Shown: piece after piece, positions 4,518 through 39,436 of the stretch
Layout: each line of letters begins with the position of its first letter
Numbering within the stretch: position 1 is the stretch's first letter
NCBI RefSeq assembly: GCF_000007705.1
Contig: NC_005085.1
Location: forward strand, 1,054,001-1,118,000
Direction of reading: 5' to 3'
Origin: Chromobacterium violaceum ATCC 12472
GTDB taxonomy: Bacteria; Pseudomonadota; Gammaproteobacteria; Burkholderiales; Chromobacteriaceae
Length of the DNA: 64,000 bases
Position numbers and translations under genes: made by a program
Notes under the pieces: model-generated
Database searches by the model: none
Told to the model about the DNA's origin: nothing
What the model saw: the letters and a program-made list of their open reading frames with translations, nothing else

Positions 4518-4611
4518 GGAGAAATGGCCGAGTGGTCGAAGGCACTTCCCTGCTAAGGAAGCATACGGGCTTAAACCTGTATCGAGGGTTCGAATCCCTC
4601 TTTCTCCGCCA
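4518..4611 (+). tRNA. tRNA-Ser (GCT)
   Basis: Class II tRNA with a long variable arm. Acceptor GGAGAAA pairs with TTTCTCC, the T loop is GGTTCGAATCC, and CCA is encoded (4609-4611). The anticodon loop places GCT at 4552-4554, reading AGC/AGU serine codons. First gene of the plus-strand tRNA operon. Confidence 0.96.
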
Positions 4612-4617
4612 GATAAC

Positions 4618-4694
4618 GCACCCGTAGCTCAGTTGGATAGAGTATCTGGCTACGAACCAGAGGGTCGGGCGTTCGAATCGCTCCGGGTGCGCCA
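4618..4694 (+). tRNA. tRNA-Arg (ACG)
   Basis: 77 bases including encoded CCA. Acceptor GCACCCG pairs with CGGGTGC. The anticodon stem TCTGG/CCAGA holds loop CTACGAA, giving ACG at 4652-4654 (normally edited to ICG). Identical to the two minus-strand copies at 7819-7895 and 7983-8059. Confidence 0.97.
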
Positions 4695-4697
4695 GCT

Positions 4698-4772
4698 GTC
4701 CCTATAGTTTAGCGGTTAGAACACCGCCCTTTCACGGCGGTAGCCGGGGTTCGATTCCCCGTGGGGACGCCA
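4698..4772 (+). tRNA. tRNA-Glu (TTC)
   Basis: 75 bases including CCA. Acceptor GTCCCTA pairs with TGGGGAC allowing one wobble. The anticodon stem CCGCC/GGCGG encloses CTTTCAC, anticodon TTC at 4731-4733. Identical copies lie on the minus strand at 7741-7815 and 7903-7977. Three bases separate it from tRNA-Arg. Confidence 0.97.
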
Positions 4773-4882: not shown

Positions 4883-7567
4883 TTAGAACTTATGGTTCAG
4901 TTCCAGCCAGGCCTGCCGGCCGTAGGGCGTGTAACTGCCCACCGGGTAGTACGGCCAGCCTCCCGTATAGTCTTTCTTGATGAAGTCCTGCAGGTTGTTG
5001 ACGATCACGCCTATCGAGGTTTTCTTGCTGGCCTGGTAGGTCACGCTCAGGTTGGCGAGCACGGTCGGCGTCAGGTAGCCGGTGCCGGCGCCGTTCGGGA
5101 TCTTGCCGTAGCGGGTCAGCAGCAGCGTGGACGACCAGTCGCCGATATTCCAGGTGGTGGTGAAATCCAGCTTGTCCGGCCAGTCGGTGTTGCTCATGTC
5201 GGTCAATTCGTTCTGGGCCGGATCGCTGGCGAATTGCTGGTAGGTGTGGGTCAGCACCTTGGTGTAGGCGGCCTTGAACAGGAAATCGCCCAGTCTGGCG
5301 GTGCGCAACCGGTATTTGCCGCTCAGGTCGATGCCGCTGGTACGTTCGCTGGCGGCGTTGATCGGGTTGACGATGATGGTGTTGATCGCGCCAGGATCCA
5401 CCAGCGCGTTGGCCGGATTGCGCACGATGCGGGACAGCGCGTCGCGGCACAGCGCCGAGCCGCCGTCGTAGCCGCCGGCGCGGCAGCGGGCCTCGTCCTG
5501 CAGCAGCTTGTCCGCGCTGAGGGTGGTGACCAGATCGTCTATCGTGATGTTCCAGTAGTCGAGCGAGAGGTCGGCGTCGCGGCTGGGAGACCAGACGAAG
5601 CCGAAGCCGTACGACTTGCCGCTTTCCGGCTTCAGGCCGGGGTTGCCGTTGCTGACGTAGTTGGAGCCGGGCGAGACGCCGGCGTACTGGCAGCTGGCCA
5701 GCGGTTGGCCGGATTGCGCGCAGCGCCAGTAGTCGGTGGTCGACGAGTAGTAGCCGCGGGTCTGGGTTTGGAACAGGTAGCTCATGTCCGGCGCGCGGAA
5801 GCTGGTGGCGTAGTTGCCGCGCAGCAGCAGGCTGCCGATGGGGCGGTATTCCAGGCCTGCGCCGTAGGTGAATTTCCCCTCGTTGTTGCCGGTGATCTGG
5901 TAGCGGTCATAGCGGCCGGACAGCGTCAGGTTGAGCGGCTTGGCCAGCGGCAGCAGCAACTCGGCGCCGGCCGCCTCGCGCGAGCGGGAGCCGCTGGCGC
6001 CGATGGCGGGGTTGGCGTTGTAGAACACGCCCTGATTCAGCCGCTGGTCGGGATCGTTGCTGAAGCCCTGGCTGCCCCATTCCAGCAGGCCCGCCAATTT
6101 GGCGGGGCCGGCCGGCAATTGGAAGGCCTCGCCGCTGGCGCTCAGGCTGAGCACTTGCAGCCAGGATTTGTTGTGGCTGTTGCTGTCGCCGATCAGTCCG
6201 GAGGCCTGGGCCGGCGTCAGCGGCTGATAGAAGCGGGCGAGGTTGGGCGCGTAGATGGGGATGCCGCTGCCGTCGGCGCCCAGCTGCGGGCCGAGAAAGT
6301 AGGCGTTGACGCCGGACAGCAGCATCGGCGTGGTGGCGCGGCTGGTGTAGAGCGATGCGTTGTACGCCGCTTCGTAATTCCAGCTGCCCGTCAGCTCGCC
6401 GCGCGCGCCCAGCGTCAGGTTGGCGGCGAGATCATCCCACTTGCGGTTGTAGTTGCTGGTCCCGCCCAGCTCTTCGGGGGCGAAGCGCTTGTTCCAGATT
6501 TCGTAATTGCCGGTGTTCTGGTTCCGGAAGTAGTTGCCTTGGCCGGCGGCGGCGGTCCAGTTGGGGCCGCGGGTGTTGTTTTCCGTGTGGTTGAGTCCAA
6601 TCATCGCGTCGCTGAACAGTTCGACATGCGGATTGGCCAGATAGCTGAGGCTGAGGAAGCCGCTCTGGCTCTGATTGGCGGTCTGTATCGTCCAGTATGA
6701 CGGCTTCAGCAGTCCGCTGGCGCAGTAGCCCTTCTGGCTGTTGCCTACGGTGGAGACGCTGCCGGCGAACATGCCCGAGAAGTTGCCGCAGGCGCTGCCG
6801 GCGTCCAGATAGCCGCCGCCGGCGATGCGCCGGGCCAGGATGGGAGACGGCGCTTCGCCCTGGGCGGTGGAGTCGGACATGAAGCCGCGTTGGCGGGACC
6901 AGATCGGGTTGCGCTGGCTGATTTCCAGTCCGTAGATCGCGCTGAGCTGGTCCCAGCTCTTGCCGCCGGTCAGCTGCAGCCGCGCGTTTTCGCCGCCGTG
7001 ATGCTCGGCGCCGCCGATCTTGACGTTGATCGAGGCGCCGTCGGTTTTCTTCTTCAGGATGATGTTGACCACGCCGGCGATGGCGTCCGAGCCGTAAATG
7101 GCGGATGCGCCGCCATTCAGGATCTCGATGCGGTCGATCAGCGCCGACGGGATGTTGGCCAGATTGACGAAATTGACCTGGCCTTCGTAAGCGATGGGGT
7201 AGTCCGCCATCCGGCGGCCGTTGATCAGCGTCAGCGTGTGGTTGGGGCCGAGGCCGCGCAGGCTGATGGCGTTGGCGGCCGGGGTGAAGGTGTTGCCGAA
7301 GTCGGCGCCTTGGGTGAAGCCGGTGTTCTGCGTCAGATTGTTCAGCGCGTCGTAGACGTTGGTGTAGCCCTGCTTTTCTATGTCCGCGCCGGTGATTACC
7401 GTCACGCTGGTCGGGCCTTCCTTGGCGGAGCGGGCGATGCGCGAGCCGGTGACGGTCACGCTCTCCAGCGATTCGGCGGATGGGGTGTCGGCCAGGGTCG
7501 GCAGGGCGGCGAGCAGCAGCAGGGCGGGCAGCAGCTTGAGTGGGAGGGGGATGGGCGCGGAATGCAC
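4883..7567 (-). CDS. TonB-dependent outer-membrane receptor
   Basis: 894 residues. A signal peptide covers about residues 1-26 (LLPALLLLAALPTLA). The plug domain follows with VTVTGSRI, LRGLGPNHTLTLINGRR and IEILNGGASAIYGSDAIAGV. A long beta barrel ends in the terminal aromatic WLELNHKF expected for Bam-dependent insertion. This subclass (LINGRR, GASAIYGSDAIAGVVNI) is common in proteobacteria and imports varied ligands; the substrate cannot be told. The start codon is GTG at 7567 with no strong ribosome site. No TonB/ExbBD or regulator is adjacent. The gene lies alone in the loop between two convergent tRNA operons and must have its own promoter upstream (7568-7697). Confidence 0.9.
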   Translation of the reverse strand: MHSAPIPLPLKLLPALLLLAALPTLADTPSAESLESVTVTGSRIARSAKEGPTSVTVITGADIEKQGYTNVYDALNNLTQNTGFTQGADFGNTFTPAANAISLRGLGPNHTLTLINGRRMADYPIAYEGQVNFVNLANIPSALIDRIEILNGGASAIYGSDAIAGVVNIILKKKTDGASINVKIGGAEHHGGENARLQLTGGKSWDQLSAIYGLEISQRNPIWSRQRGFMSDSTAQGEAPSPILARRIAGGGYLDAGSACGNFSGMFAGSVSTVGNSQKGYCASGLLKPSYWTIQTANQSQSGFLSLSYLANPHVELFSDAMIGLNHTENNTRGPNWTAAAGQGNYFRNQNTGNYEIWNKRFAPEELGGTSNYNRKWDDLAANLTLGARGELTGSWNYEAAYNASLYTSRATTPMLLSGVNAYFLGPQLGADGSGIPIYAPNLARFYQPLTPAQASGLIGDSNSHNKSWLQVLSLSASGEAFQLPAGPAKLAGLLEWGSQGFSNDPDQRLNQGVFYNANPAIGASGSRSREAAGAELLLPLAKPLNLTLSGRYDRYQITGNNEGKFTYGAGLEYRPIGSLLLRGNYATSFRAPDMSYLFQTQTRGYYSSTTDYWRCAQSGQPLASCQYAGVSPGSNYVSNGNPGLKPESGKSYGFGFVWSPSRDADLSLDYWNITIDDLVTTLSADKLLQDEARCRAGGYDGGSALCRDALSRIVRNPANALVDPGAINTIIVNPINAASERTSGIDLSGKYRLRTARLGDFLFKAAYTKVLTHTYQQFASDPAQNELTDMSNTDWPDKLDFTTTWNIGDWSSTLLLTRYGKIPNGAGTGYLTPTVLANLSVTYQASKKTSIGVIVNNLQDFIKKDYTGGWPYYPVGSYTPYGRQAWLELNHKF

Positions 7568-7698
7568 GGGAGCCTGTTCTCGTCTGGATGTTGGGAAGAA
7601 CAGGATATCTCTTTGTCATTTTTGCGGTGCGAAGAAAAATGGCAATGCAAATGACGCAGCGGGATATGGCGGAACTTGGCAGGCGATGCTGGGGAATG

Positions 7699-7732
7699 AA
7701 AAAAGCCCCGCATTTTCATGCGAGGCTTTTTT
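7699..7732 (-). terminator. Rho-independent terminator of minus-strand tRNA operon
   Basis: The same hairpin as at 4781-4814 in the opposite orientation, with A and T runs on either side. It ends the Arg-Glu-Arg-Glu transcript facing the TonB receptor gene. Confidence 0.9.
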
Positions 7733-7740
7733 CTGCATCC

Positions 7741-7815
7741 TGGCGTCCCCACGGGGAATCGAACCCCGGCTACCGCCGTGAAAGGGCGGTGTTCTAACCG
7801 CTAAACTATAGGGAC
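7741..7815 (-). tRNA. tRNA-Glu (TTC)
   Basis: Reverse complement of the 4698-4772 gene, identical over 75 bases, CCA encoded. Last tRNA of the minus-strand operon. Confidence 0.97.
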
Positions 7816-7818
7816 AGC

Positions 7819-7895
7819 TGGCGCACCCGGAGCGATTCGAACGCCCGACCCTCTGGTTCGTAGCCAGATACTCTATCCAACTGAGCTACGGGTGC
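7819..7895 (-). tRNA. tRNA-Arg (ACG)
   Basis: Identical to 4618-4694 on the opposite strand, 77 bases with CCA. Third gene of the minus-strand operon. Confidence 0.97.
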
Positions 7896-7902
7896 GTATT
7901 GT

Positions 7903-7977
7903 TGGCGTCCCCACGGGGAATCGAACCCCGGCTACCGCCGTGAAAGGGCGGTGTTCTAACCGCTAAACTATAGGGAC
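7903..7977 (-). tRNA. tRNA-Glu (TTC)
   Basis: Second minus-strand copy, identical over 75 bases including CCA. It is separated from the next Arg gene by a 7-base spacer that differs from the other units. Confidence 0.97.
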
Positions 7978-7982
7978 ATGCC

Positions 7983-8059
7983 TGGCGCACCCGGAGCGAT
8001 TCGAACGCCCGACCCTCTGGTTCGTAGCCAGATACTCTATCCAACTGAGCTACGGGTGC
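7983..8059 (-). tRNA. tRNA-Arg (ACG)
   Basis: First gene of the minus-strand Arg-Glu-Arg-Glu operon. 77 bases with CCA, identical to the other Arg copies. Confidence 0.97.
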
Positions 8060-8096
8060 GCTGTTTCGCGAGACGTTGTGTCTTGCGAGAGGTCGG

Positions 8097-8124
8097 ATAT
8101 TACAGATGGGGTTTGCCCTGTCAA
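8097..8124 (-). promoter_or_regulatory. Sigma-70 promoter of tRNA Arg-Glu-Arg-Glu operon
   Basis: On the minus strand TTGACA (8124-8119) is followed after 16 bases by TAATAT (8102-8097), then a GC-rich discriminator CCGACCTC. Near-consensus stable-RNA promoter about 37 bases before the first tRNA. Confidence 0.83.
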
Positions 8125-8246
8125 CACTTCGTAGGATTTTTTTGCAAGCCGGTAAACTCGGCGGCTGTCCCTGTCGCGGCTGGCCAACATTTTCAACCAT
8201 ATGGCATGTTGGCGGCGCAGCCGCAAGACACGAAAGCGAAGCGAGA

Positions 8247-9701
8247 TTGAATACCTTGTTTGCGCAGCCTTGCGCCATCATCGATCTGGAAACCACCGGC
8301 GGCAACATCGCGCGCGACCGCATCACCGAAGTCGGCATGGTGCTGATAGACGGCGAGCGGGTCGAGCGCCTGTCATGGCTGGTCAACCCCGGCCAGCCCA
8401 TTCCGCCCTTCATCGAGAACATGACCGGCATCAGCAACGAGATGGTGGCCGGCGCGCCGCCGTTTTCCGCGCAGGCCGACGAATTGCTGGACCGTTTGCA
8501 GGGGCGCTTGCTGCTGGCGCACAACGCCCGCTTCGATTACGGCTTCCTGAAGAACGAATTCCGCCGCCACGGCCTGCGCTTCCAGGCGCGTGCGCTGTGC
8601 ACGGTCAAGCTGTCGCGCCGGCTGTACCCGCAGCATTTCAAGCACAGCCTGGACAGCCTGATCGCCCGCCACGGCATCGACATGCCGGAGCGCCACCGCG
8701 CGCTGGCGGACGCGGAGGCGGTTTACCGCTTCATCCGGATCGCCGAGGCCGAGCTGGGCGAAGACCGGGTGGCGCATGAGGCGGCGCAATTGTTGTCGCA
8801 GCCGGCAGAGCTATCCAGCCTGCCGGCCGAACTGCAGCAGCAGATCGAGGACATGCCGGACTCGGCCGGCGTCTACGCGCTGTTCGGGGCGGACGGCCGC
8901 GCGCTCTACGTCGGCCGCGCGCCCAATCTGTACCGCAAGGCGCTGGGCCATTTCGCCGAGCGCAAGCCCGGGCACAAGAGCCACGAGGTCCGGATAGACG
9001 AACCGGTGGCGCGCGTGGAATGGCGGGAGTGCCTGGGCGAGTTCGGCGCCCGGCTGCAGGAGCTGCAGTGGCTGGGCAGGCTGCAGCCGCTGCACAATCC
9101 CCGCGCCAGGATGATGGGCGAGATCTGCACGCTGCAGGTGCAGGCCGGCGACGACGGCTACGTTCGGCCGCTGCCGGTCTCGGCGCGCGACATCGACTTC
9201 AGCCGCACCGCCGATCTATATGGTCTGTTCCGACACGCGCGCGAGGCGCGCAAGGCGCTGGCGCAGATCGCGCTGGCCCAGGGCCTGTGCCAGTCGGTGC
9301 TGGGCGTGGAGCAGGTGACCAGCCGCAAGGGCGCGCCCTGCGCGGCCTACCGGATCCGCCGCTGCCGCGGCGCCTGCGTCGGCGACGAGGGCGCCGACAG
9401 CCATAACGCCAGGCTGCTGGCCGCGCTGCAGCGGCTCAAGGTCAAGCCCTGGCCGTTCGACGGCGAGGTGGCGGTGGTGGAGCGCGACGAGGTATGCGGC
9501 GACGTGACCGAGCACCTGTTCGACCGCTGGTGCTATCTGGGCAGCCGTCGCAACGGCGGCGAGCTGGAGGGGACGCCGGCTTTCGACCTCGATTACTACA
9601 AGCTGCTGGAAGGCTGGCTGCGCCGGCCGGAGCCGGGCGGCGAGCTCAGGGCGCCGGCTGAGCCGGCGCCAGCGGCCGCGCGCGCAGCAGGCCGTATTTG
9701 A
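8247..9701 (+). CDS. DnaQ-like 3'-5' exonuclease fused to GIY-YIG (UvrC/Cho-like) nuclease
   Basis: 484 residues from a TTG start at 8247 (LNTLFAQPCAIIDLETTG). The same frame is open upstream to an ATG at 8076, but that part overlaps the tRNA promoter and is unconserved-looking. Residues about 10-170 are a DEDDh exonuclease: IIDLETTG, AHNARFDYGFL, HRALADAEAVY. Residues about 200-285 are a GIY-YIG domain (GVYALFG, ALYVGRA) as in the 3'-incision half of UvrC and in Cho. A C-terminal part contains a Cys cluster (RRCRGACVG). Such fusions are known in beta- and gammaproteobacteria and presumably act in DNA repair. The last 56 bases overlap the convergent glycosyltransferase gene. Confidence 0.85.
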   Translation: MNTLFAQPCAIIDLETTGGNIARDRITEVGMVLIDGERVERLSWLVNPGQPIPPFIENMTGISNEMVAGAPPFSAQADELLDRLQGRLLLAHNARFDYGFLKNEFRRHGLRFQARALCTVKLSRRLYPQHFKHSLDSLIARHGIDMPERHRALADAEAVYRFIRIAEAELGEDRVAHEAAQLLSQPAELSSLPAELQQQIEDMPDSAGVYALFGADGRALYVGRAPNLYRKALGHFAERKPGHKSHEVRIDEPVARVEWRECLGEFGARLQELQWLGRLQPLHNPRARMMGEICTLQVQAGDDGYVRPLPVSARDIDFSRTADLYGLFRHAREARKALAQIALAQGLCQSVLGVEQVTSRKGAPCAAYRIRRCRGACVGDEGADSHNARLLAALQRLKVKPWPFDGEVAVVERDEVCGDVTEHLFDRWCYLGSRRNGGELEGTPAFDLDYYKLLEGWLRRPEPGGELRAPAEPAPAAARAAGRI

Positions 9702-30834: not shown

Positions 30835-32442
30835 TCAGCCTCCGTCAGGCAGGGTGCCCTCCTTGCGCAAGGTTTGCCAGCTGAGGCCGAAGCGCGCCAG
30901 ATATTTGCGCAGCCGGTCGGCGTCGTTGGGATGGGTTTTGCCTTGGCGTGAAACGGCGAATAAGCGACGACCAGCATCGGATAAGCTGGCCGATTGGCGG
31001 CAGACGCGAAGCACCGTTTCCAGCTGCGCGCGGTCGAACAGGTCCAGGCCTTCCCATTGCTCGCTACTCAGCGGGCAAGGGGGAGCGTCGGTTTGCCGCT
31101 CCCCGCCCCAGTCCTCCCGTAGGCGGCCAATCTCTTCGTTCACCAGGCCGTTGTCGATGCGTCCGGCATCCGCCAGCGTGGCCATACGCGTGACCGAAGC
31201 CGACAGCTCGCGGAAATTGCCTAGCCATAGGGCATCCTGCGACAGCGCGAAATCCAGGTAAGCGCGGCGGGCTTCGGCGTTGAAGCGCACGTGCCGGCCT
31301 TGTTCGCCGGCGTGTCTGGCCAGTTCGAATTCCAGATTGGGCTCTATGTCTTCGCGGCGGGCGGCTAGGCCGGGCAACTCAAAGTGCCATAGATTGATGC
31401 GGGCATAAAGATCCTCGCGGAACTTTCCCTCGCGCACCCACTGCCGCAGATTGCGCATGGTGCCGCATACCAGCTGGAAATCGCTGCTGGCTTCGCGGTC
31501 GCCGCCAAAGGGGAGAAAGCGTTTCTCCTCTATGGCCTTTAACAGCATGGCCTGTTCGTCCAAGCCCAGTTCGCCGACCTCGTCCAGAAACAGCAGCCCG
31601 CCGTCGGCGCTGCGCAGCAAGCCTGCGCGTTCGTTCAGCGCGCCTGTGAACGCGCCCTTGACGTGGCCGAACAGCGCGGACATCGCGCTGTCCCCGCGCA
31701 GGGTGGCACAGTTGACTTCAACGAAACGGCCGGACAATTGGCGACGCGCCTTTTTCAATTCATACAGCCGCCGGGCCAGCTGACTTTTGCCCGCGCCAGT
31801 CGGGCCGCGCAGCAGGATGGGGGCCGATGAGCGCGTAGCCACTCGTTCGATCTGCTCTATCATCCGGTTGAAGCCCGGATTGAGCGTGGCGATGCCGGAC
31901 TTGAGAAAGGCCACCGTGTCTTCGCTCTGCTGCGCGAAACGGCTGGCGATGTGGTCGTATCGGGCGAGATCGAGATCGATCACGCTGACTCGGCCGGCGA
32001 AGTCGTTGGCCTGCCGCGTCGGCGAGCTTTGCAGCAATCGGGCCGGAATGCGGCGAGACTCGGCCAGCAGGAACCAGCAGATCTGCGCGACGTGGGTGCC
32101 GGTTGTGATGTGAAGCAGGTAGTCCTCCTGCTCGGTGTCGAAGGCGTAGCCGGCTGCGAAGTCGTCCAGCGCCGAATACACCTCGCCGAAATCCCATGGA
32201 TCTTCCAGATTGACTGCATGCAGCCTCACCTCGGTTTCCGGAGATATCTCGGCGATGTCGCGTGCGGTCAGTTCTGCCAACTGATGGTGATGGTTGTCGT
32301 GCAGCAATTCCAGCCGCGCTAGCGGCAACTGCGGCTGCCGGCAGATGCCGATGCTGGGGCGCCATTTTTGCCAGCGTGCCTGGCCGTAGCCCCCCTTGTC
32401 CAGCACCGTGCCCAGGAATCCTATTGCGACCTTGTTTTTCAT
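30835..32442 (-). CDS. rtcR: RtcR, sigma-54 activator of RNA repair genes
   Basis: 535 residues. Residues 1-180 are the RtcR N-terminal CARF-like ligand domain (VAIGFLGTVLDKG, HITTGTHVAQ). An AAA+ sigma-54 activation domain follows with Walker A GPTGAGKS (213-220), the sigma-54 contact loop GAFTGA (263-268) and Walker B GGLLFLDEVGEL. The C terminus holds a DNA-binding helix region. In E. coli RtcR is known to activate rtcBA in response to RNA-damage ligands. It is divergent from rtcB, whose upstream region has a sigma-54 promoter. Confidence 0.96.
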   Translation of the reverse strand: MKNKVAIGFLGTVLDKGGYGQARWQKWRPSIGICRQPQLPLARLELLHDNHHHQLAELTARDIAEISPETEVRLHAVNLEDPWDFGEVYSALDDFAAGYAFDTEQEDYLLHITTGTHVAQICWFLLAESRRIPARLLQSSPTRQANDFAGRVSVIDLDLARYDHIASRFAQQSEDTVAFLKSGIATLNPGFNRMIEQIERVATRSSAPILLRGPTGAGKSQLARRLYELKKARRQLSGRFVEVNCATLRGDSAMSALFGHVKGAFTGALNERAGLLRSADGGLLFLDEVGELGLDEQAMLLKAIEEKRFLPFGGDREASSDFQLVCGTMRNLRQWVREGKFREDLYARINLWHFELPGLAARREDIEPNLEFELARHAGEQGRHVRFNAEARRAYLDFALSQDALWLGNFRELSASVTRMATLADAGRIDNGLVNEEIGRLREDWGGERQTDAPPCPLSSEQWEGLDLFDRAQLETVLRVCRQSASLSDAGRRLFAVSRQGKTHPNDADRLRKYLARFGLSWQTLRKEGTLPDGG

Positions 32443-32588
32443 TTCTTATCTAATTGGATAATTTAATAGATGATTTTATCGCTTTTTTCAGGGTGGTGCC
32501 GGGCGTGAGTTTGAGTGATTGATTGGTGTTGATTTTTTTTGTTTTTAATTTCAATGCCTTGAATGGTTTTTGGTTTTGGGCGTCCAGG
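32443..32588. other. rtcR/rtcB divergent regulatory region
   Basis: AT-rich, no gene. A near-perfect palindrome TTATCTAATTGGATAA (32446-32461, 14 of 16 symmetrical) lies just before the rtcR start and may hold its promoter. The rest probably contains RtcR upstream activating sites for the rtcB promoter, which I cannot delimit. Confidence 0.4.
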
Positions 32589-32604
32589 CTGGCACGTTTC
32601 TGGC
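32589..32604 (+). promoter_or_regulatory. Sigma-54 promoter of rtcB
   Basis: CTGGCACGTTTCTGGC: the -24 GG and -12 GC are 10 bases apart, with the conserved TGGCACG. Only the -12 element deviates (TGGC for TTGC). It sits 140 bases before rtcB and opposite the RtcR activator gene. Confidence 0.85.
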
Positions 32605-32619
32605 GTTAAGGAAAAGCAG

Positions 32620-32705
32620 GATGGCAGCCTCCTTCATGGGAGAACCGGTGCCAGCCTCCCCGCGGCGCCAGTCGCAAGGGCGGGCTAGGGTTATGGCCGC
32701 TAGCC
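32620..32705 (+). other. Structured 5' leader of rtcB mRNA
   Basis: Downstream of the sigma-54 promoter are two foldable units. One is TGGCA/TGCCA (32622-32626, 32649-32653) enclosing CTCC/GGAG (32629-32632, 32639-32642). The other is GGCTAG/CTAGCC (32683-32688, 32700-32705). The leader is about 130 bases long and has no coding sign. It might be only a UTR, or a small RNA of the repair operon. Confidence 0.35.
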
Positions 32706-32746
32706 AAGCGTCAACATCAAACCATTACACAATAAGAAAGCAAGAC

Positions 32747-33967
32747 ATGAATCATTATCAAACCCTGCAGGGCGAGAACGGTGCGCCGATCAAGATGTGG
32801 ACACAGGGCGTGCCTGTGGAGCCGGCCGCGCGCGATCAACTGCTGCGTACCGCGCAAATGCCCTTCATCTACAAACACCTGGCGGTGATGCCGGACGTGC
32901 ACCTGGGCAAGGGTTCGACCATAGGCAGCGTGATTCCCACCCGGGGCGCGATCATCCCGGCCGCGGTGGGGGTGGACATAGGCTGCGGCATGATGGCCGT
33001 GCGCACCACGCTGACGGCGGCCGACCTGCCGGATAATCTGTTCGGCCTGCGTAGCGCGATCGAGGCCGCGGTGCCGCACGGCCGTACCAGCACCCGCAGC
33101 GGGCGCGACAAGGGCGCCTGGGGCGCGCCGCCGGAGACGGTGGACGCCGCCTGGGGCAAGCTGTTTCCTGGTTTCCAATCCATCGTCGCCAAGCATCCGC
33201 AGCTGGAGAAAACCAATAACCGCAGCCATCTGGGTACGCTGGGAACCGGCAACCACTTTGTCGAAGTGTGCCTGGACGAGGCCGGCCGCGTCTGGTTCAT
33301 GCTGCACTCGGGCTCGCGTGGTGTAGGCAACGCCATCGGCAATCTGTTCATTGAGTTGGCCCAGGCTGATATGCGGCAGCACATTGCCAATTTGCCGCAC
33401 CGTGAATTGGCGTATTTCCAACAGGGTAGCCGGCATTTCGACGACTATGTGGAAGCAGTGGGCTGGGCGCAGGAGTTTGCGCGGCAGAACCGCATGCTGA
33501 TGATGCAGCACGTGGTGGCCGCGGCGCGCAAGGTGATCGTCAAACCGTTCTCCGCCGACGTCGAGGCAGTCAACTGTCACCACAACTATGTGCAGGAGGA
33601 AAACCACTTCGGCCAACAAGTGCTGGTGACGCGCAAGGGCGCGGTGGCTGCGCACAAGGGGCAATTGGGTATCATCCCCGGCTCCATGGGGGCCAAGAGC
33701 TTCATCGTTCGCGGCCTGGGCAACGAGGAGGCGTTCTGTTCCTGCAGCCATGGCGCCGGTCGCACGATGAGCCGCGCCGAAGCCAAGCGCCGGTTCAGCG
33801 TCGACGATCAGGCGCGCGCCACCGCCCACGTCGAGTGCCGCAAGGATGCCGATGTGATCGACGAGATTCCTATGGCCTACAAGGATATCGATGCGGTAAT
33901 GGCTGCACAGAACTCCTTGGTGGAAGTGGTGCACACGCTGCGCCAGGTGGTGTGCGTGAAGGGCTAG
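32747..33967 (+). CDS. rtcB: RNA-splicing ligase RtcB
   Basis: Joins 2',3'-cyclic phosphate or 3'-phosphate RNA ends to 5'-OH ends using GTP and Mn2+. 406 residues from ATG at 32747 (MNHYQTLQGENG). Metal ligands include D77 and C80 in GVDIGCGMM, His residues in HLGTLGTGNHF and NCHHNYVQEENHF, and the guanylylated nucleophile His335 in CSCSHGAGR (H337 in E. coli). Under a sigma-54 promoter with RtcR opposite. No rtcA (RNA cyclase) follows; a nucleotidyltransferase gene does. Confidence 0.97.
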   Translation: MNHYQTLQGENGAPIKMWTQGVPVEPAARDQLLRTAQMPFIYKHLAVMPDVHLGKGSTIGSVIPTRGAIIPAAVGVDIGCGMMAVRTTLTAADLPDNLFGLRSAIEAAVPHGRTSTRSGRDKGAWGAPPETVDAAWGKLFPGFQSIVAKHPQLEKTNNRSHLGTLGTGNHFVEVCLDEAGRVWFMLHSGSRGVGNAIGNLFIELAQADMRQHIANLPHRELAYFQQGSRHFDDYVEAVGWAQEFARQNRMLMMQHVVAAARKVIVKPFSADVEAVNCHHNYVQEENHFGQQVLVTRKGAVAAHKGQLGIIPGSMGAKSFIVRGLGNEEAFCSCSHGAGRTMSRAEAKRRFSVDDQARATAHVECRKDADVIDEIPMAYKDIDAVMAAQNSLVEVVHTLRQVVCVKG

Positions 33968-34009
33968 CAATGTGGATGAAGCCGGTCCGCGGGCCGGCGA
34001 AAGGGCAAT

Positions 34010-34837
34010 ATGCATAGATTCAAATATGATCATCCGCTGGACGACGGTGTGCGTCGGCGGGTGATGGAGGAATTGGCGGCGCTGGAGCGCAGGCACCACG
34101 TTCGGGTGCTTTATGCCTGCGAGTCCGGCAGTCGCGCCTGGGGCTTTGCCTCGCCGGATAGCGACTACGATGTGCGCTTTCTCTACGTGCACCGACCGCA
34201 GTGGTATCTGCAGGTGGAGCCGCAGCGTGACGTGATCGAGCTTCCGCTGGATGATGAGCTGGATATCAGCGGCTGGGAGCTGCGCAAGGCGCTGCAACTG
34301 TTGAATCGTTCCAACCCGACTATGTTCGAGTGGCTGCAGTCTCCGCTGGTGTACCGAGCCGACGAGAAAGCGGCAGCGGCGCTGCGCGAGCTGATGGCGG
34401 ACTTCCATTCCCTTGGGCGTTGCCGGTGGCATTATTTGTCCATGGCGCGCAAAAACCACCGCGTTCATTTGCAGGGAGAAACGGTCCGGCTGAAGAAGTA
34501 CTTGTACGTGCTGCGGCCGTTGCTGGCGGTGCGCTGGCTGGATGCGGGAAAGGGCTTGCCGCCGATGCGTTTCGCCGACCTGGCTGCGGCGACGGTGGAG
34601 GATGATGGACTGGCTGCCGAGATCAATCATCTGCTGGCTATCAAGATGGCGGCCGGTGAGGCGCAGCTGGGGGGCCGGCTGCCCAAGCTGGACGCTTTTA
34701 TCGCCTCCATGCTAGCGGAGCCGGTGCCGCCGCTGCCGGGACGCCATGACGGCGATGTCAGGCGGCTGGATCGTCTGTTGCAGGAATGGGTGATGGGGAG
34801 CGTGCGCGAAGATGGGTCAGCGGCTTGCGAAATTTAA
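34010..34837 (+). CDS. Predicted nucleotidyltransferase linked to rtcB
   Basis: 275 residues of the pol-beta-superfamily group often encoded with rtcB (COG3541-like). Residues 35-58 hold ESGSRAWGFASPDSDYDVRF: the GS motif and paired carboxylates D52 and D54, the classic metal-binding nucleotidyltransferase site. The C-terminal half is helical. It lies 42 bases after rtcB with a ribosome site AAAGGG, so it is probably in the same sigma-54 operon. The substrate is not established; RNA-end or tRNA modification is inference from context. Confidence 0.82.
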   Translation: MHRFKYDHPLDDGVRRRVMEELAALERRHHVRVLYACESGSRAWGFASPDSDYDVRFLYVHRPQWYLQVEPQRDVIELPLDDELDISGWELRKALQLLNRSNPTMFEWLQSPLVYRADEKAAAALRELMADFHSLGRCRWHYLSMARKNHRVHLQGETVRLKKYLYVLRPLLAVRWLDAGKGLPPMRFADLAAATVEDDGLAAEINHLLAIKMAAGEAQLGGRLPKLDAFIASMLAEPVPPLPGRHDGDVRRLDRLLQEWVMGSVREDGSAACEI

Positions 34838-34966: not shown

Positions 34967-35365
34967 ATGGAAGCAGGCAGGAAGACGATGGGGGGCCGGC
35001 ATTGGCGCGGCATGGTCTTGGCCGGGCTGGCGGTCTTGGCTGCCTGCGGGCGGGAGGTGGCCAAGCCGCAGGCGGCCGACCTGCAAAGGGCGGAGACGCT
35101 GCGTCCCGCCGACGCGCAACTGGCGCGCAAGTACGAGCGTTCCTGCCTGATCTGCCATGGCAACCAGGCCAGCCAGGCGCCGCTGGCCGGTTTTGCGCCG
35201 GCTTGGGAGGCCAGGCTGGAGAAGGGCATGCCCTTGTTGCTGTCCCATGTCCGCGACGGCCTGAACGCGATGCCGCCGCGCGGTTATTGCAATGACTGCA
35301 GCGACGAGGAGTTCGCCCGGCTGATCGCCTTCATGTCCGATAGCGGACAAGGAGGCGCGCGATGA
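34967..35365 (+). CDS. Lipoprotein c-type cytochrome (c5-like)
   Basis: 132 residues. The lipobox LAAC puts the lipidated Cys at 27. Mature part has one haem site C60-LI-C63-H64, a Met axial ligand candidate M102 in NAMPPRG, and a Cys pair C108/C111 (CNDC) followed by SDEEFARLIAFM, all as in cytochrome c5. It would be anchored in the periplasm and carry electrons. GAGGAGA precedes the ATG. Its stop overlaps the next start (ATGA), so it is coupled to the FAD oxidase, for which it is the likely electron acceptor. Confidence 0.88.
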   Translation: MEAGRKTMGGRHWRGMVLAGLAVLAACGREVAKPQAADLQRAETLRPADAQLARKYERSCLICHGNQASQAPLAGFAPAWEARLEKGMPLLLSHVRDGLNAMPPRGYCNDCSDEEFARLIAFMSDSGQGGAR

Positions 35366-36753
35366 AGCCGGTTTTGAATCGCCGAGCCTTGCTGCGGCTG
35401 GGCGGCGGCGCGCTGCTGGGCGCCTGGGCAGCGCGCTCCGCCGGGCCGCGGGCCGCCGCGACTGCCGGCGGCTACCGCTGGTGCAACTGGAGCGGCCTGC
35501 AGCGCTGCGCCGCGCAGGCGCTGGCGACGCCCGGCGACGAGGCCGAACTGGCGCGGCTGCTGCGCGAGGCATCGCGCTCCGGCACGCCGCTGCGCTGCGT
35601 CGGCGCCGGCCATTCCTTCACCCCGCTGGTGCCCACGCCGGGGACTATCGTGTCGCTGGACCGGATGTCCGGCCTGCTGTCTTATGACGCAGCCGCTGGC
35701 GAGGCCATCTTGCAGGCCGGCACCCGCATCGGCCAGCTGGCGCGCTTGCTGGATGCGCAGGGCATGGCGCTGCGCAACCAGCCCGACGTCGATGTCCAAT
35801 CTTTCGCCGGCGCGATCAGCACCGCCACCCATGGCACCGGCGCCGGCCTGCCGGCCCTGCATGCCGACGCGCGCGCGTTGCGGCTGCTGACGCCGTCCGG
35901 CGAGACGCTGGACTGCGGCCAGGGCCGCGACGACGATCTGCTGCAGGCGGCGCGGGTGTCGCTGGGCAGCCTGGGCGTGATCGCCCGCGCCACGGTGGCG
36001 ACGCTGCCCGCTTATTATCTGCAGCGCAGGCTGTGGCTGCTGCCGGCTGGGCAAATGCTGGACGCCGCGCCGGAACTGGCGCGGCGGCACCGTCATTTCG
36101 AGTTCTACCACCTGCCGTTCACCGGCTACGCCGCCGCGATCACCCACGACATCCGCCCGCCGGGGCCGGCGTCGCGGCCAGCGTCCGGCGACGAGGACAT
36201 GCTGCGCGAGCTGCGCCGGCTGCGCGACTGGCTGGGCGGCATGCCGGCGCTGCGGCGCTGGACCGCGCAGAAGCTGATCGACCCGAAGCTGAGCGAGCAG
36301 GCCTTCGACAAATCCTGGCGGCTGCTGTCCACCGCGCGGCCCACCCGCTTCAACGAGAGCGAGTGGCATGTGCCGCGGGAAGCGGGCATCGCCTGCGTGC
36401 GCGAAGTGATCGAACGCCTGGAGCGGCGCGACGATGTGTTCTTCCCGCTGGAATTCCGCTTCGTGCGGGCCGACGACGCCTGGCTCAGCCCTTTCTACCG
36501 CCGCGACTCCTGCTCGATCGCCGTCCATGCCGCCGCCGGCGAGCCGCATGATTACCTGCTGACCGAATTGGCGCCGGTTTTCCGCAAATACGAGGGCCGG
36601 CCGCACTGGGGCAAGCTGCACCCCTACGGCGCGGCCGAGCTGGCCGCGCTCTATCCGCGCTGGAACGATTTTTTGAAGCTGAGGCGGGAGCTGGATCCCA
36701 AGGGCGTGCTGCTCAACCCCCATCTGCGCCGCGTGCTCGGCGTGCCGGCATGA
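35362..36753 (+). CDS. Tat-exported FAD oxidoreductase, aldonolactone oxidase family
   Basis: 463 residues. A twin-arginine signal (NRRALLRLGGG, then a hydrophobic Ala-rich stretch to about residue 33) predicts folded export. The VAO/PCMH FAD domain has RCVGAGHSFTPLVPT with His84 at the position that binds FAD covalently in relatives, and ISTATHGTG. The C-terminal ALO domain ends with GRPHWGKLH and LNPHLRRVLG. Family members oxidise sugar-1,4-lactones or polyols. The coupling to a cytochrome gene upstream suggests a dehydrogenase rather than an O2-using oxidase here; substrate unknown. ATGA overlaps at both ends. Confidence 0.88.
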   Translation: MKPVLNRRALLRLGGGALLGAWAARSAGPRAAATAGGYRWCNWSGLQRCAAQALATPGDEAELARLLREASRSGTPLRCVGAGHSFTPLVPTPGTIVSLDRMSGLLSYDAAAGEAILQAGTRIGQLARLLDAQGMALRNQPDVDVQSFAGAISTATHGTGAGLPALHADARALRLLTPSGETLDCGQGRDDDLLQAARVSLGSLGVIARATVATLPAYYLQRRLWLLPAGQMLDAAPELARRHRHFEFYHLPFTGYAAAITHDIRPPGPASRPASGDEDMLRELRRLRDWLGGMPALRRWTAQKLIDPKLSEQAFDKSWRLLSTARPTRFNESEWHVPREAGIACVREVIERLERRDDVFFPLEFRFVRADDAWLSPFYRRDSCSIAVHAAAGEPHDYLLTELAPVFRKYEGRPHWGKLHPYGAAELAALYPRWNDFLKLRRELDPKGVLLNPHLRRVLGVPA

Positions 36754-38036
36754 GCGGCCCGTCCCAGGGGCGGCGCCGCCTGCTGGCGGCCTTGGGCGCG
36801 GGCGCGGCGGCAAGCCTGGTGTGGCTGGCCAGGCCATCCGCGCGCGGCGAGCCGCACGACGCCTATTTCCGCCAGCTGCAGGCGGCGCTGCGCCAGGCCG
36901 GCATCGCCGAGCCGACGCTGGTGTTGGACCGCCAGCGCCTGCGCGCCAATATCCGGCGGATCTCGGATCACCTTGCCGGCAAGATGGCGCTCCGGGTGGT
37001 GGTGAAGTCGCTGCCGTGCCCCGCCTTGCTGGCCGAGGCGGCTTTGCTGGCCGGCAGCCGGCGGCAGATGCTGTTCAGCCTGCCGCAGCTGGAGGCGATG
37101 GCCAAGGGCGAGCGCGACATCCTGCTGGGCAAGCCGCTGCCTGCCGCCGCCGCGCTGGCCTTTTACCGCCAGTTTTCCGACGCGGCCTTCCGGCCGGAGC
37201 GGCAATTGCAATGGCTGGTGGACACGCCGGAGCGGCTGGCGCAGTACCGCGAGCTGGCGCGCGGGCAGCATCTGCATCTGCGCCTCAATTTCGAGATCGA
37301 CGTCGGCCTGCACCGCGGCGGCGTCGCCGACATCGCCACGCTGCGGCGCATGCTGGACATGGCGGCCGAGGAGCCGCGGCTGCAGTGGTCCGGCCTGATG
37401 GGCTACGACGCGCACGTCGCCAAGATTCCGGATCTGCCGGGCTTGAGGGCCAAGGCGCTTCGCCACGCGCGCGCCCGCTATGCCGCCTTCGCCGCCGCCG
37501 CGCGGGCGCATCCGGCCGCACGGACGGCAAGCGGGCCGTGTTTCAACGCCGCCGGTTCGCCTACTTACCGGCTCTACCACGGCGACGGCCCGGAAAACGA
37601 AGTCGCGGTGGGCTCGGCCATGGTCAAGCCCGCCGATTTCGATCTTCCCCTGCTGGACGACCTGCTGCCGGCCTGCTTCATCGCCACGCCGGTGCTGAAG
37701 ACGCTGCCGCGATTCGAGTTGCCCTACGGCGTGGAGTGGCTGGGCGGGTTGGTGGGCGGTTGGGATGCCAACGCGCGGCGCGGCTACTTCATCTATGGCG
37801 GCAACTGGCTGGCCGATCCGGCATCGCCGTCGGGCCTGGAGAGCAGCGGCCTGTACGGCCATTCGTCCAACCAGCAACTGCTGGTCGGTTCAGGCCGTCA
37901 GGCGCTGGCGGTGGACGACATGGTGTTCTTCCGCCCGCGCCAGAGCGAGGCGGTGCTGCAGCAGTTCGGCGACATCGCGGTGTACGAGGGCGGCCGCATC
38001 GTAGCCAGCTGGCCGGTGCTGCCGGCCGCGGGTTGA
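36750..38036 (+). CDS. Exported PLP enzyme, alanine-racemase/DSD1-like fold
   Basis: 428 residues with a twin-arginine signal (GRRRLLAALGAGAAAS, about 1-32). The N-terminal alanine-racemase-type barrel has TLVLDRQRLRANI and VVVKSLPCP, where K86 is the probable PLP lysine. A later segment (NFEIDVGLHRGG, SGLMGYDAH) also fits DSD1/D-threonine-aldolase relatives. The C-terminal part lacks an obvious HxC zinc pair (it reads FFRPRQSEAVLQQ). Possible activities are aldolase, dehydratase or racemase on a D-amino or hydroxyamino acid. Start overlaps the FAD gene stop (ATGA), so the three genes form one tightly coupled operon. Confidence 0.75.
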   Translation: MSGPSQGRRRLLAALGAGAAASLVWLARPSARGEPHDAYFRQLQAALRQAGIAEPTLVLDRQRLRANIRRISDHLAGKMALRVVVKSLPCPALLAEAALLAGSRRQMLFSLPQLEAMAKGERDILLGKPLPAAAALAFYRQFSDAAFRPERQLQWLVDTPERLAQYRELARGQHLHLRLNFEIDVGLHRGGVADIATLRRMLDMAAEEPRLQWSGLMGYDAHVAKIPDLPGLRAKALRHARARYAAFAAAARAHPAARTASGPCFNAAGSPTYRLYHGDGPENEVAVGSAMVKPADFDLPLLDDLLPACFIATPVLKTLPRFELPYGVEWLGGLVGGWDANARRGYFIYGGNWLADPASPSGLESSGLYGHSSNQQLLVGSGRQALAVDDMVFFRPRQSEAVLQQFGDIAVYEGGRIVASWPVLPAAG

Positions 38037-38481: not shown

Positions 38482-39303
38482 TCAGGCTGAGGCGTTGTCG
38501 TCCTCGCTGTACTCGTCGCTGGCGTAGTCGGAGTCGGCCACGGTCTGGTAGTCGTCGCGCGGGTGCGCGTCCTCCCGGTAGCCGGCATCGTCCTGGGCGT
38601 CGGATTCGTAGTAGTTGTTGATGGTGATGTGCTGCTCCACCGGCTGTTCCGCCTCGTATCCGGCATTGCCCTGTCCGCCGCCGTGGCTGGGCTTGTCGTC
38701 GCTGAACAGGCTTTCTATGCCTTGGACCAGGAAGGTGCCGGCGGCGACGCCGGCGGCCGTGGTGGCGACATTGCCGAGGAAGCTGCCCACGCCGCTGGCG
38801 AAACCGCCGGTGCCGCCGCCGCCGAAGAAGCTCTGGCGCGGCGCCGGTGCAGGCTGTTGGTAGGCTGGCGCGGCTTGTTGATAGGCGGGCGCTGCCGGCG
38901 GATAAGCCGGAGGCGCCGCTTGGTAGGCGGGCGCGGGCTGTTGATAGGCCGGAGCCGGCGCAGCCTGGCGCGGAGCGGCGAAGGCGGGCGCCGCGGGCGC
39001 GCCGCCCCAGGCCGCGGAACCGGCGTTGGGATCCAGGAAGGTGCCGGGCGCGCCGGCGGGGGCGGGGACCGGCGCGCTGCGCGCGGCTTGCAGGTCGGAC
39101 TGCAGCTTGGCGATTTGCGCGTTGGCGGCGTTCAGCGCCTGGTCCTGCTGCATGCAGCGCAGCACCAGCAGGTAGACGGCGTCCGGCTGTTGGGCGGCGG
39201 CCTGCATGATAGCGGCGTTGGCCTGCGGGTCCTTGGCCATGCCGCGGACTTGCACCAGTTGATTCAGGAAGTTTTGCAGCGCTTGGGTTTCTTGCGGAGT
39301 CAT
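38482..39303 (-). CDS. DUF2076-family protein
   Basis: 273 residues from ATG at 39303 (MTPQETQALQNFLNQLVQVRG), the usual DUF2076 N terminus. Residues 1-75 are helical and include DPQANAAIMQAAAQQPDAVY. A Pro/Ala/Tyr/Gln low-complexity middle (about 105-165) has repeats such as PAYQQ and APAYQ. A Gly-rich hydrophobic stretch follows (GVGSFLGNVATTAAGVAAG). The tail is acidic. Members are found in proteobacterial periplasm or membrane fractions with unknown role. Longer upstream frame to 39435 lacks a ribosome site. Confidence 0.8.
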   Translation of the reverse strand: MTPQETQALQNFLNQLVQVRGMAKDPQANAAIMQAAAQQPDAVYLLVLRCMQQDQALNAANAQIAKLQSDLQAARSAPVPAPAGAPGTFLDPNAGSAAWGGAPAAPAFAAPRQAAPAPAYQQPAPAYQAAPPAYPPAAPAYQQAAPAYQQPAPAPRQSFFGGGGTGGFASGVGSFLGNVATTAAGVAAGTFLVQGIESLFSDDKPSHGGGQGNAGYEAEQPVEQHITINNYYESDAQDDAGYREDAHPRDDYQTVADSDYASDEYSEDDNASA

Positions 39304-39436
39304 ATCTTGGTTTTCCGGGGGAAGGGTAGAGACGGGGCGGCTGGCGTCCATCTCGACTGAGCATGTCGCTTTAATTTGTAAATGAATTGTATATGCGTTT
39401 GGCGTGGATGGGGAAGGCTCGCATGGCCAAAGCATG

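What the first reader, a model, noticed from the sequence alone, without database searches (positions are those of the whole stretch)
34967..38036. Coupled operon for an exported cytochrome c, FAD oxidase and PLP enzyme
Three genes overlap by ATGA at both junctions. The products are a lipoprotein c5-like cytochrome (lipobox, CxxCH), a VAO/ALO-family flavoenzyme and an alanine-racemase-fold PLP protein. The last two start with twin-arginine signals, so folded flavin and PLP proteins would work in the periplasm. Seen directly: overlaps, signals, motifs. Known: ALO-family enzymes oxidise lactones or polyols and DSD1-like enzymes act on D-amino acids. Inference: a periplasmic pathway in which the PLP enzyme makes or uses the oxidase substrate and electrons leave through the cytochrome. 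I know of no characterised pathway of this composition.
Basis: partly seen in the sequence, partly recalled or inferred. Interest (0 to 1): 0.75.

Follow-up and report, generated by a model that had tools for sequence, protein, structure and literature searches.

The report
Periplasmic sphingosine-breakdown operon, sphBCD type
Three overlapping genes in a Chromobacterium genome match a partly understood bacterial system (sphBCD) that detoxifies sphingosine, an antimicrobial lipid, so the find is a new member of a known kind rather than an unknown pathway, though what its third enzyme does is still an open question.

Summary
Cytochrome c, FAD enzyme and PLP enzyme lie at 34967-38036 with two ATGA overlaps, a lipobox and two twin-arginine signals. 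The composition is not uncharacterised: it is the sphBCD operon of Pseudomonas, where sphBC are needed for sphingosine metabolism (2014 and 2025 papers). Identity to the Pseudomonas locus is 50% (SphB), 40% (SphC) and 47% (SphD). SphC sits directly upstream of SphD in 76 of 80 named loci. A neutral ceramidase, which releases sphingosine, lies in the same cluster in 11 of 80 and occurs in 7 of 9 SphD genomes against 7 of 360 others. Most likely SphC oxidises the C1 alcohol of sphingoid bases in the periplasm, SphB takes the electrons, and SphD acts on the product. That last step is unproven: SphD keeps the PLP lysine but lacks the metal ligands and base of D-threonine aldolase. Three relatives lack Tat signals and cytochrome and carry an oxidase-type glycine beside the flavin, suggesting an oxygen-using cytoplasmic variant. 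No ceramidase was found in this genome, nor an adjacent sphR or sphA.

The parts
34967..35365 (+). sphB-like lipoprotein c5-type cytochrome c, 132 aa
   Evidence: PF13442 48.5 bits; 50.5% over 97 aa, E 1.5e-23 to the cytochrome of the Pseudomonas sph locus L202
35036..35047 (+). lipobox L-A-A-C (residues 24-27)
   Evidence: read from sequence; a lipobox regex matched upstream of the heme motif in 46 of 58 homologues
35144..35158 (+). heme c motif CLICH (residues 60-64)
   Evidence: read from sequence; CxxCH in 58 of 58 homologues
35270..35299 (+). M102-P-P-x-G-x-C108-x-x-C111: candidate axial Met and second Cys pair of c5-type cytochromes (roles recalled)
   Evidence: read from sequence; MPxxGxCxxC in 58 of 58 homologues
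35362..35365 (+). ATGA stop/start overlap sphB/sphC
   Evidence: 4-base overlap also in L014 (coordinates)
35362..36753 (+). sphC-like FAD enzyme (VAO/ALO family) with Tat signal, 463 aa
   Evidence: TIGR01679 488 bits; the only match of that family found in this genome; 40% over 427 aa, E 8.5e-102 to Pseudomonas SphC
35380..35394 (+). twin-arginine motif RRALL of SphC
   Evidence: read from sequence; motif in 69 of 74 assessable homologues
35611..35613 (+). His84, predicted covalent FAD attachment (GHSF)
   Evidence: aligned to AldO 2vfr; His in 78 of 79 rows, the other a gap
35782..35784 (+). Pro141 at the oxygen-gatekeeper position (Ala113 of GalDH)
   Evidence: aligned to 8qmy and its A113G variant 8qnc; P in 73 of 79 rows, G in 3, A in 2, one gap
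36457..36459 (+). Arg366, equivalent of the catalytic Arg of the ALO family
   Evidence: 79 of 79 rows
36613..36615 (+). Lys418, equivalent of the catalytic Lys of the ALO family
   Evidence: 79 of 79 rows
36750..36753 (+). ATGA stop/start overlap sphC/sphD
   Evidence: 4-base overlap also in L014 (coordinates)
36750..38036 (+). sphD-like fold-III PLP enzyme with Tat signal, 428 aa
   Evidence: PF01168 74.6 bits; 47% over 404 aa, E 7.5e-111 to Pseudomonas SphD
36771..36785 (+). twin-arginine motif RRRLL of SphD
   Evidence: read from sequence; motif in 77 of 78 assessable homologues
37005..37007 (+). Lys86, predicted PLP Schiff-base lysine
   Evidence: aligned to Lys59 of D-threonine aldolase 4v15 (paper passages); 83 of 83
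37404..37406 (+). Tyr219, equivalent of the PLP-stacking Tyr187 of D-threonine aldolase
   Evidence: aligned; 83 of 83
37941..37949 (+). Q398-S-E400, at the place of the metal ligands His347/Asp349 of D-threonine aldolase
   Evidence: hhalign against four relatives, three of them with GHCDPT; Q 80 of 83, E 83 of 83

Best explanation
The operon is the Chromobacterium form of sphBCD, a periplasmic route that oxidises and detoxifies sphingoid bases (sphingosine, sphinganine, phytosphingosine). SphC, exported folded with covalent FAD, oxidises the primary C1 alcohol; SphB, a lipoprotein cytochrome c, takes the electrons toward the respiratory chain; SphD, a PLP enzyme with its own Tat signal, then acts on the 2-amino-3-hydroxy product, most likely by a retro-aldol split to a long-chain aldehyde plus glycine (or aminoacetaldehyde). 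Shown here: homology and gene order, signals, catalytic residues, and linkage to ceramidase in relatives. Shown by others in Pseudomonas: the need for sphBC, and sphingosine remaining in the sphBCD deletion. Inferred: the direct substrate of SphC, the electron path, and the SphD reaction. Stereochemistry fits (my deduction): oxidising C1 of natural 2S,3R sphinganine to a carboxylate swaps the priorities at C2 and gives a 2R, that is D-configured, 3-hydroxy amino acid, the class that D-threonine-aldolase relatives cleave. The retro-aldol step on its own I put at about 0.45.
For: Homology of all three proteins in the same order to a Pseudomonas locus that also holds an amino-acid kinase gene (argB by my reading; PF00696), an AraC regulator (PF12625+HTH_18) and an SphA-type outer membrane protein (PF13557), matching the published argB-sphR-sphA-sphD-sphC-sphB map. 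Its SphC start agrees at 28 of 30 positions with the SphC signal printed for PA5327. sphBCD is induced by sphingosine through SphR; deletion of sphBCD, or of sphC alone, impairs growth with three sphingoid bases, and sphingosine remains in cultures of the sphBCD deletion. Linkage: neutral ceramidase (four tested proteins match PF04734 with 453-615 bits and PF17048) on the same strand in 11 of 80 loci, 5 of them with the match beginning 32-144 bp after sphD. Co-occurrence: ceramidase in 7 of 9 SphD genomes against 7 of 360 without, Fisher p 7e-10, and in 38 of 79 named SphD genomes searched (23 of 50; 15 of 29). TIGR01679 over cut-off in 7 of 369 class genomes, all 7 with SphD. SphC keeps the family Arg-Lys pair in 79 of 79 rows. 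The four best PDB matches of the SphD profile are D-3-hydroxyaspartate or D-threonine aldolases.
Against: In PAO1 sphD was dispensable for growth with sphingosine, no product was identified, and direct action of SphBC on sphingosine is unproven. Deleting sphBC in P. fluorescens WCS365 had no phenotype, deleting Caulobacter sphC had a small effect in a narrow range, and Caulobacter sphBC did not significantly complement. SphD lacks the D-threonine aldolase metal ligands (Q398/E400 for His347/Asp349) and its base (K225, variable, for His193). In this genome no ceramidase was found, only a distant SphA relative (34%), no SphR half-site in the operon or its upstream gap, and no SphR homologue in the window (the rest of the genome was not searched for it). 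SphC without SphD exists in other species by the literature, and SphD without SphC over cut-off in 9 of 12 chosen genomes. SphB was not found in 22 of 80 loci: in 15 with room upstream no CxxCH frame of 70 residues or more was seen, in 3 a contig end cuts the view, and 4 lack SphC as well. In two Alcanivoracaceae loci (L097, L099) another PLP enzyme (PF00291 in L097) follows sphD, which this scheme does not explain.
Confidence: 0.78

Rival explanations
1. SphB and SphC alone detoxify sphingoid bases; SphD is accessory, does another PLP reaction (dehydration, racemisation, scavenging of a reactive amino-aldehyde) or matters only when the base is used as a carbon source.
For: sphD dispensable in PAO1 and sphBC-only species exist; aldolase metal ligands and base not conserved in SphD; SphD also occurs without SphC.
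Against: SphD sits directly behind SphC in 76 of 80 loci, is present in all 7 of 369 class genomes with SphC over cut-off, and its own active-site residues are invariant in the set (K86, Y219, N374, Q375, E400 in 83 of 83). The 80 loci were found with SphD, so they cannot show how often SphC lacks it. The authors also note that the two tested organisms with sphBC only show little or no effect of its deletion.
Confidence: 0.3
2. One reading: a lactone, polyol or hydroxy-acid oxidation pathway in which a D-amino-acid PLP enzyme makes or uses the oxidase substrate, unrelated to sphingolipids.
For: SphC is an ALO/alditol-oxidase relative; the 2025 authors say that some co-occurrence hits are likely unrelated to sphingosine; no ceramidase found in this genome; a second, PALP-type PLP enzyme follows sphD in L097 and L099.
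Against: Homology and gene order with sphBCD and the ceramidase linkage and co-occurrence. Among the 26 neighbour clusters whose sequences I looked at I recognised no sugar or lactone catabolic gene.
Confidence: 0.1
3. The flavoenzyme works as an H2O2-forming oxidase even here, and the cytochrome serves another process.
For: In 15 loci with SphC and room upstream no CxxCH frame was seen, 13 of them with Pro or Ala at the gatekeeper; Pro there is not the Ala known for dehydrogenases.
Against: 4-base overlap of the two genes here; only plasmids with both sphB and sphC complement the triple deletion in PAO1; the three Gly rows have no cytochrome beside them.
Confidence: 0.12

Closest known systems
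sphBCD of Pseudomonas aeruginosa (PA5328-PA5326)
   Same: Same three families, order and strand; lipoprotein cytochrome, Tat signal on SphC; in the Pseudomonas locus L202 SphD also starts with a twin-arginine stretch.
   Different: No adjacent sphR/sphA, no SphR half-site at the operon, 4-base overlaps, Pro instead of Ala at the gatekeeper position, no ceramidase found in the genome.
L-galactono-1,4-lactone dehydrogenase and the aldonolactone oxidoreductases
   Same: Fold family, catalytic Arg-Lys pair, and in GalDH delivery of electrons to cytochrome c.
   Different: Covalent-FAD His present (GalDH binds FAD noncovalently); substrate predicted to be an amino diol, not a lactone.
Alditol (xylitol) oxidase AldO, PDB 2vfr
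   Same: Aligns over nearly the whole mature length (query 41-459), covalent-FAD His, oxidation of a terminal CH2OH (the last recalled).
   Different: AldO is recalled as an oxygen-using oxidase without export; SphC is exported and paired with a cytochrome.
D-threonine aldolase (4v15) and D-3-hydroxyaspartate aldolase BhcC (6qkb)
   Same: Fold-III PLP enzymes on D-3-hydroxy amino acids; PLP Lys and stacking Tyr conserved.
   Different: Metal ligands His/Asp replaced by Gln/Glu and base His193 replaced by a variable residue; BhcC model score 27 bits against a cut-off of 690.

Membership tests
SphBCD operon (Pseudomonas type) | cytochrome c, TIGR01679-type FAD enzyme and Ala-racemase-fold PLP enzyme consecutive on one strand, homologous to PA5328-PA5326 | tested here: met
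   (compared with the G679 locus, which I take for a very near relative of the PA genes)
SphBCD operon (Pseudomonas type) | periplasmic targeting signals: lipoprotein SphB, Tat signal on SphC | tested here: met
   sequence motifs only; localisation itself not testable here
SphBCD operon (Pseudomonas type) | SphR control (sphR/sphA adjacent, SphR half-sites upstream) | tested here: not met
   no adjacent sphR or sphA; no TGNCCSNNRNNSNCC in the operon or its upstream gap, 8 in the window against 12 expected. A sphR elsewhere in the genome was not searched for
SphBCD operon (Pseudomonas type) | needed for sphingosine metabolism | not testable with these tools
   requires a deletion and sphingosine assay
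TIGR01679 bact_FAD_ox / aldonolactone oxidoreductase fold | curated score cut-off; covalent-FAD His; catalytic Arg-Lys pair | tested here: met
   488 bits against 292; His84, Arg366, Lys418
D-threonine aldolase | PLP lysine and stacking Tyr (Lys59, Tyr187) | tested here: met
   K86 and Y219, 83 of 83
D-threonine aldolase | metal ligands His347 and Asp349 and base His193 | tested here: not met
   Q398, E400 and K225 by sequence alignment (residues defined in PMC4401734 passages); no structure model could be made
DSD1-like D-serine dehydratase | His-Cys metal pair | tested here: not met
   Q398-S-E400 at that place; His-Cys pair as described
c5-type monoheme cytochrome c | CxxCH, distal Met and C-terminal Cys pair | tested here: met
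   the Cys pair as a c5 mark is recalled; the 2025 paper calls SphB c5-like

The most novel reading that the evidence does not exclude
The family exists in two forms that differ in where the electrons go. The exported form (Tat signals, Pro or Ala at the gatekeeper, usually a cytochrome) is a dehydrogenase in the periplasm. A cytoplasmic form (L019, L090, L094) has neither Tat signals nor the cytochrome, carries Gly at the gatekeeper and an SphR-like regulator beside it, and would be an oxygen-using sphingoid-base oxidase; it sits at two places of the SphD tree, so it probably arose twice. In both forms SphD would be a new kind of metal-free D-3-hydroxy-amino lyase with a Gln/Glu pair where aldolases hold a metal.
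Probability: 0.3. Interest if true: 0.62.

Novelty: new member of a known kind. Interest (0 to 1): 0.42.

Why it matters
Sphingoid bases are antimicrobial lipids on epithelia and are released by plant roots. How bacteria break them down is poorly known: the 2025 paper leaves the substrate of SphC and the biochemical mechanism open. The ceramidase-sphBCD clusters of Ralstonia, Massilia and Aquabacterium relatives give independent genomic support that the pathway serves sphingolipids. The stereochemical argument, the changed SphD site and the gatekeeper residue turn the open steps into single-enzyme tests.

Tried and rejected

Rows dropped and limits of counts: 17 of 369 genomes matched at E <= 0.001; I count 9 as SphD (E 1.7e-29 or better; one, G289, is an 82-residue fragment) and drop 8 partial matches (E 6.7e-11 to 6.5e-4) as other PLP relatives. 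In one search one of 15 matching genomes (G236) is under the family cut-off and was not counted as ceramidase-bearing. Species are not independent, so the Fisher value overstates the evidence. The 80 named loci are the best 80 of 548 and were found with SphD. One search covered 50 of the 80, one search was given the other 30 and searched 29; L051 was not held. The 11 ceramidase loci were counted only within the fetched flanks (at most 8 kb a side, less at contig ends). Gene clusters mix in shadow frames and served only to find neighbours; of them I looked at 26 in more detail.
Full report
What is there. The products are a lipoprotein c-type cytochrome (PF13442), an FAD enzyme that clears the TIGR01679 cut-off with ease (488 bits against 292) and an alanine-racemase-fold PLP protein (PF01168). 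Proteins 2 and 3 begin with RRALL and RRRLL in front of a hydrophobic stretch. The genome (G000, one contig of 4,751,080 bases) has the size that I recall for Chromobacterium violaceum ATCC 12472; its nearest named relatives by SphD are Chromobacterium piscinae, vaccinii and subtsugae. The neighbours are an RNA-repair set (RtcR, RtcB, RlaP) upstream and a DUF2076 gene downstream, with no obvious link.

How conserved. In the genus, SphD is in 7 of 19 genomes, the window's own included. SphC is next to it in all 7; SphB in 6, the seventh contig ending too soon. A scan of bacterial and archaeal genomes returned the best 80 of 548 related loci. SphC is directly upstream in 76 of 80; of the other four, two are cut by a contig end and two (L054, L079) lack it, their genomes having no TIGR01679 match over cut-off. 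SphB is found in 58 of 80; in 15 others with room upstream no CxxCH frame was seen within 1.2 kb. In an even sample of 369 genomes of the class, TIGR01679 over cut-off occurs in 7, and all 7 carry SphD. Results against strict linkage: of 12 genomes that I picked because SphC seemed missing or doubtful beside SphD, 9 have no SphC over cut-off (7 of the 9 Pseudomonadales among them, plus G443 and G692), and in G515 SphC lies on another contig.

What it is. The same three families form sphBCD of Pseudomonas aeruginosa. [quoted passage not shown] Okino and Ito 2016 (PMC5150637, passages) saw the same genes rise with sphingomyelin, together with neutral ceramidase. DiGianivittorio et al. 2025 (PMC11893366, abstract, sections 17-20 and 22 and passages) report that sphB and sphC, but not sphD, are needed for full growth with sphingosine, that sphinganine and phytosphingosine behave alike, and that sphingosine remains in the sphBCD deletion; they state that direct action and the product are unknown. 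They also report no phenotype for sphBC in P. fluorescens WCS365 and little for Caulobacter. SphC (PA5327) stands in a table of Tat substrates (PMC6085387, one passage). I obtained a matching locus from a Pseudomonas genome (G679, L202): an amino-acid kinase gene (argB by my reading), an AraC regulator and a PF13557 outer membrane protein, then SphD, SphC and SphB in the published map. The window proteins are 47% (SphD), 40% (SphC) and 50% (SphB) identical to those three. The word Chromobacterium does not occur in the main text of the 2025 or the 2016 paper. Paper searches listed none that by title or abstract start treats sphingosine metabolism in Chromobacterium, but one search listed only 15 of 2,270 papers and only 20 of 45.

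Independent genomic evidence for the substrate. A recurrent neighbour of the triple in Burkholderiales is a neutral ceramidase: four tested proteins match PF04734 (453-615 bits) and PF17048. A match lies on the same strand in 11 of 80 loci: in five it begins 32-144 bp behind sphD, in four 1.5-1.8 kb behind it, and in two it stands upstream of sphB. In the class sample, 7 of 9 SphD genomes have a ceramidase, against 7 of 360 without SphD (Fisher p 7e-10); among named SphD genomes it is 23 of 50 and 15 of 29. The window's own genome has no match, so here sphingoid bases would have to come from outside or through another enzyme.

Mechanism. SphC keeps the Arg-Lys pair that acts on the substrate hydroxyl in the aldonolactone oxidoreductases (79 of 79 rows) and the His to which FAD is bound covalently in related enzymes (78 of 79, one gap). 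SphB has CxxCH and MPxxGxCxxC in 58 of 58. So SphC oxidising an alcohol and handing electrons to SphB is well supported by anatomy; the sphingoid C1 alcohol as the group oxidised is inference. If C1 becomes a carboxylate, C2 of natural sphinganine changes its descriptor from S to R, because the priorities of its two carbon neighbours swap; the product is D-configured. That suits a relative of D-3-hydroxyaspartate and D-threonine aldolases, the four best solved-structure matches of the SphD profile. This deduction is mine; the term D-threonine does not occur in the main text of the 2025 paper.

A caution on SphD. In D-threonine aldolase Lys59 binds PLP, Tyr187 stacks on it, His347 and Asp349 hold the metal and His193 is the likely base (PMC4401734, passages). 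SphD keeps the first two (K86 and Y219, 83 of 83) but has Q398 (80 of 83) and E400 (83 of 83) at the metal site and a variable K225 (K in 52 of 83) at the base; H222 (82 of 83), N374 and Q375 (83 of 83) are its own conserved polar residues. It is therefore not a D-threonine aldolase by its defining residues, though it may still work like one. The Pseudomonas phenotype, too, leaves room for another role. In L097 and L099 a PALP-type PLP enzyme (PF00291 tested in L097) follows sphD, which I cannot place.

Two electron routes. At the position of Ala113 in galactonolactone dehydrogenase, Ala blocks oxygen and Gly admits it (PMC11099136, passages). SphC rows have Pro in 73 of 79, Ala in 2 (the Pseudomonas locus and L100), Gly in 3 and a gap in 1. 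The three Gly rows (L019, L090, L094) have no twin-arginine signal before SphC and no cytochrome beside it. L019 has an MFS transporter between SphC and SphD and an aldehyde dehydrogenase behind them; L090 and L094 have an aldehyde dehydrogenase nearby (tested in L090; same cluster). In L094 an RR match before SphD passed the regex, but no such motif stands near the conserved start. All three have an SphR-like regulator beside SphC, the best three matches to SphR among the frames compared (33-34% over 321-339 aa); in L090 regulator and SphC share one open frame, whereas in L094 a stop separates them. L019 groups with the Pseudomonas row and the two Dyella rows stand apart in the SphD tree, though within an open fork and on rather long branches. 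The pattern suggests an oxygen-using cytoplasmic form, but it rests on three loci, other loci lack the cytochrome while keeping Tat signals and Pro, and what Pro does at this place was not settled by what I read.

Verdict. The claim of an uncharacterised composition is wrong: this is an sphBCD homologue, a new member of a known, partly solved kind. The remaining interest lies in the open SphD reaction, the ceramidase clusters and the possible second form.

Noticed in passing
window 30835-34837: RNA-repair set rtcR (-), rtcB (+) and rlaP (+) directly upstream of sphB (PF06956, PF01139, PF10127).
   Followed up: partly
window 4518-4772 and 7741-8059: Two clusters of tRNA genes: Ser-Arg-Glu on + and Glu-Arg-Glu-Arg (in coordinate order) on -, with repeated anticodons.
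   Followed up: no
window 38482-39435 (-): DUF2076 protein (PF09849) follows the operon; a DUF2076 gene lies on the far side of sphD in L014 too, and genes with a similar start in L016 and L017.
   Followed up: partly
L156, L157, L158, L159, L160: Pseudomonadales SphD homologues with an N-terminal hydrophobic anchor instead of a twin-arginine signal and no SphB or SphC found in the 11-12 kb fetched.
   Followed up: partly
L019 5790-11082; L090 and L094 around 6700-9160: SphC-SphD pairs without SphC Tat signal or cytochrome, with Gly at the gatekeeper and an SphR-like AraC regulator beside them; in L090 regulator and SphC share one open frame.
   Followed up: partly
L097 9265-10260; L099 9275-10243: A PALP-type PLP enzyme (PF00291 tested in L097) directly behind sphD in two Alcanivoracaceae loci; reads to me like the D-cysteine desulfhydrase/ACC deaminase group.
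   Followed up: partly
L067, L089: Contigs labelled Acidobacteria whose SphD sits on short branches inside Hyphomonadaceae: probably misbinned MAG contigs.
   Followed up: partly
L084, L091, L093, L098: In Caulobacteraceae a Mla/MCE-type lipid transporter set lies on the opposite strand next to sphD (gene clusters; ABC_tran and MlaD tested in L093, MlaE in L091, ABC_trans_aux in L098).
   Followed up: partly
L049: Massilia sp. H-1: ceramidase match split over several frames and a shortened SphD start, perhaps assembly errors.
   Followed up: no
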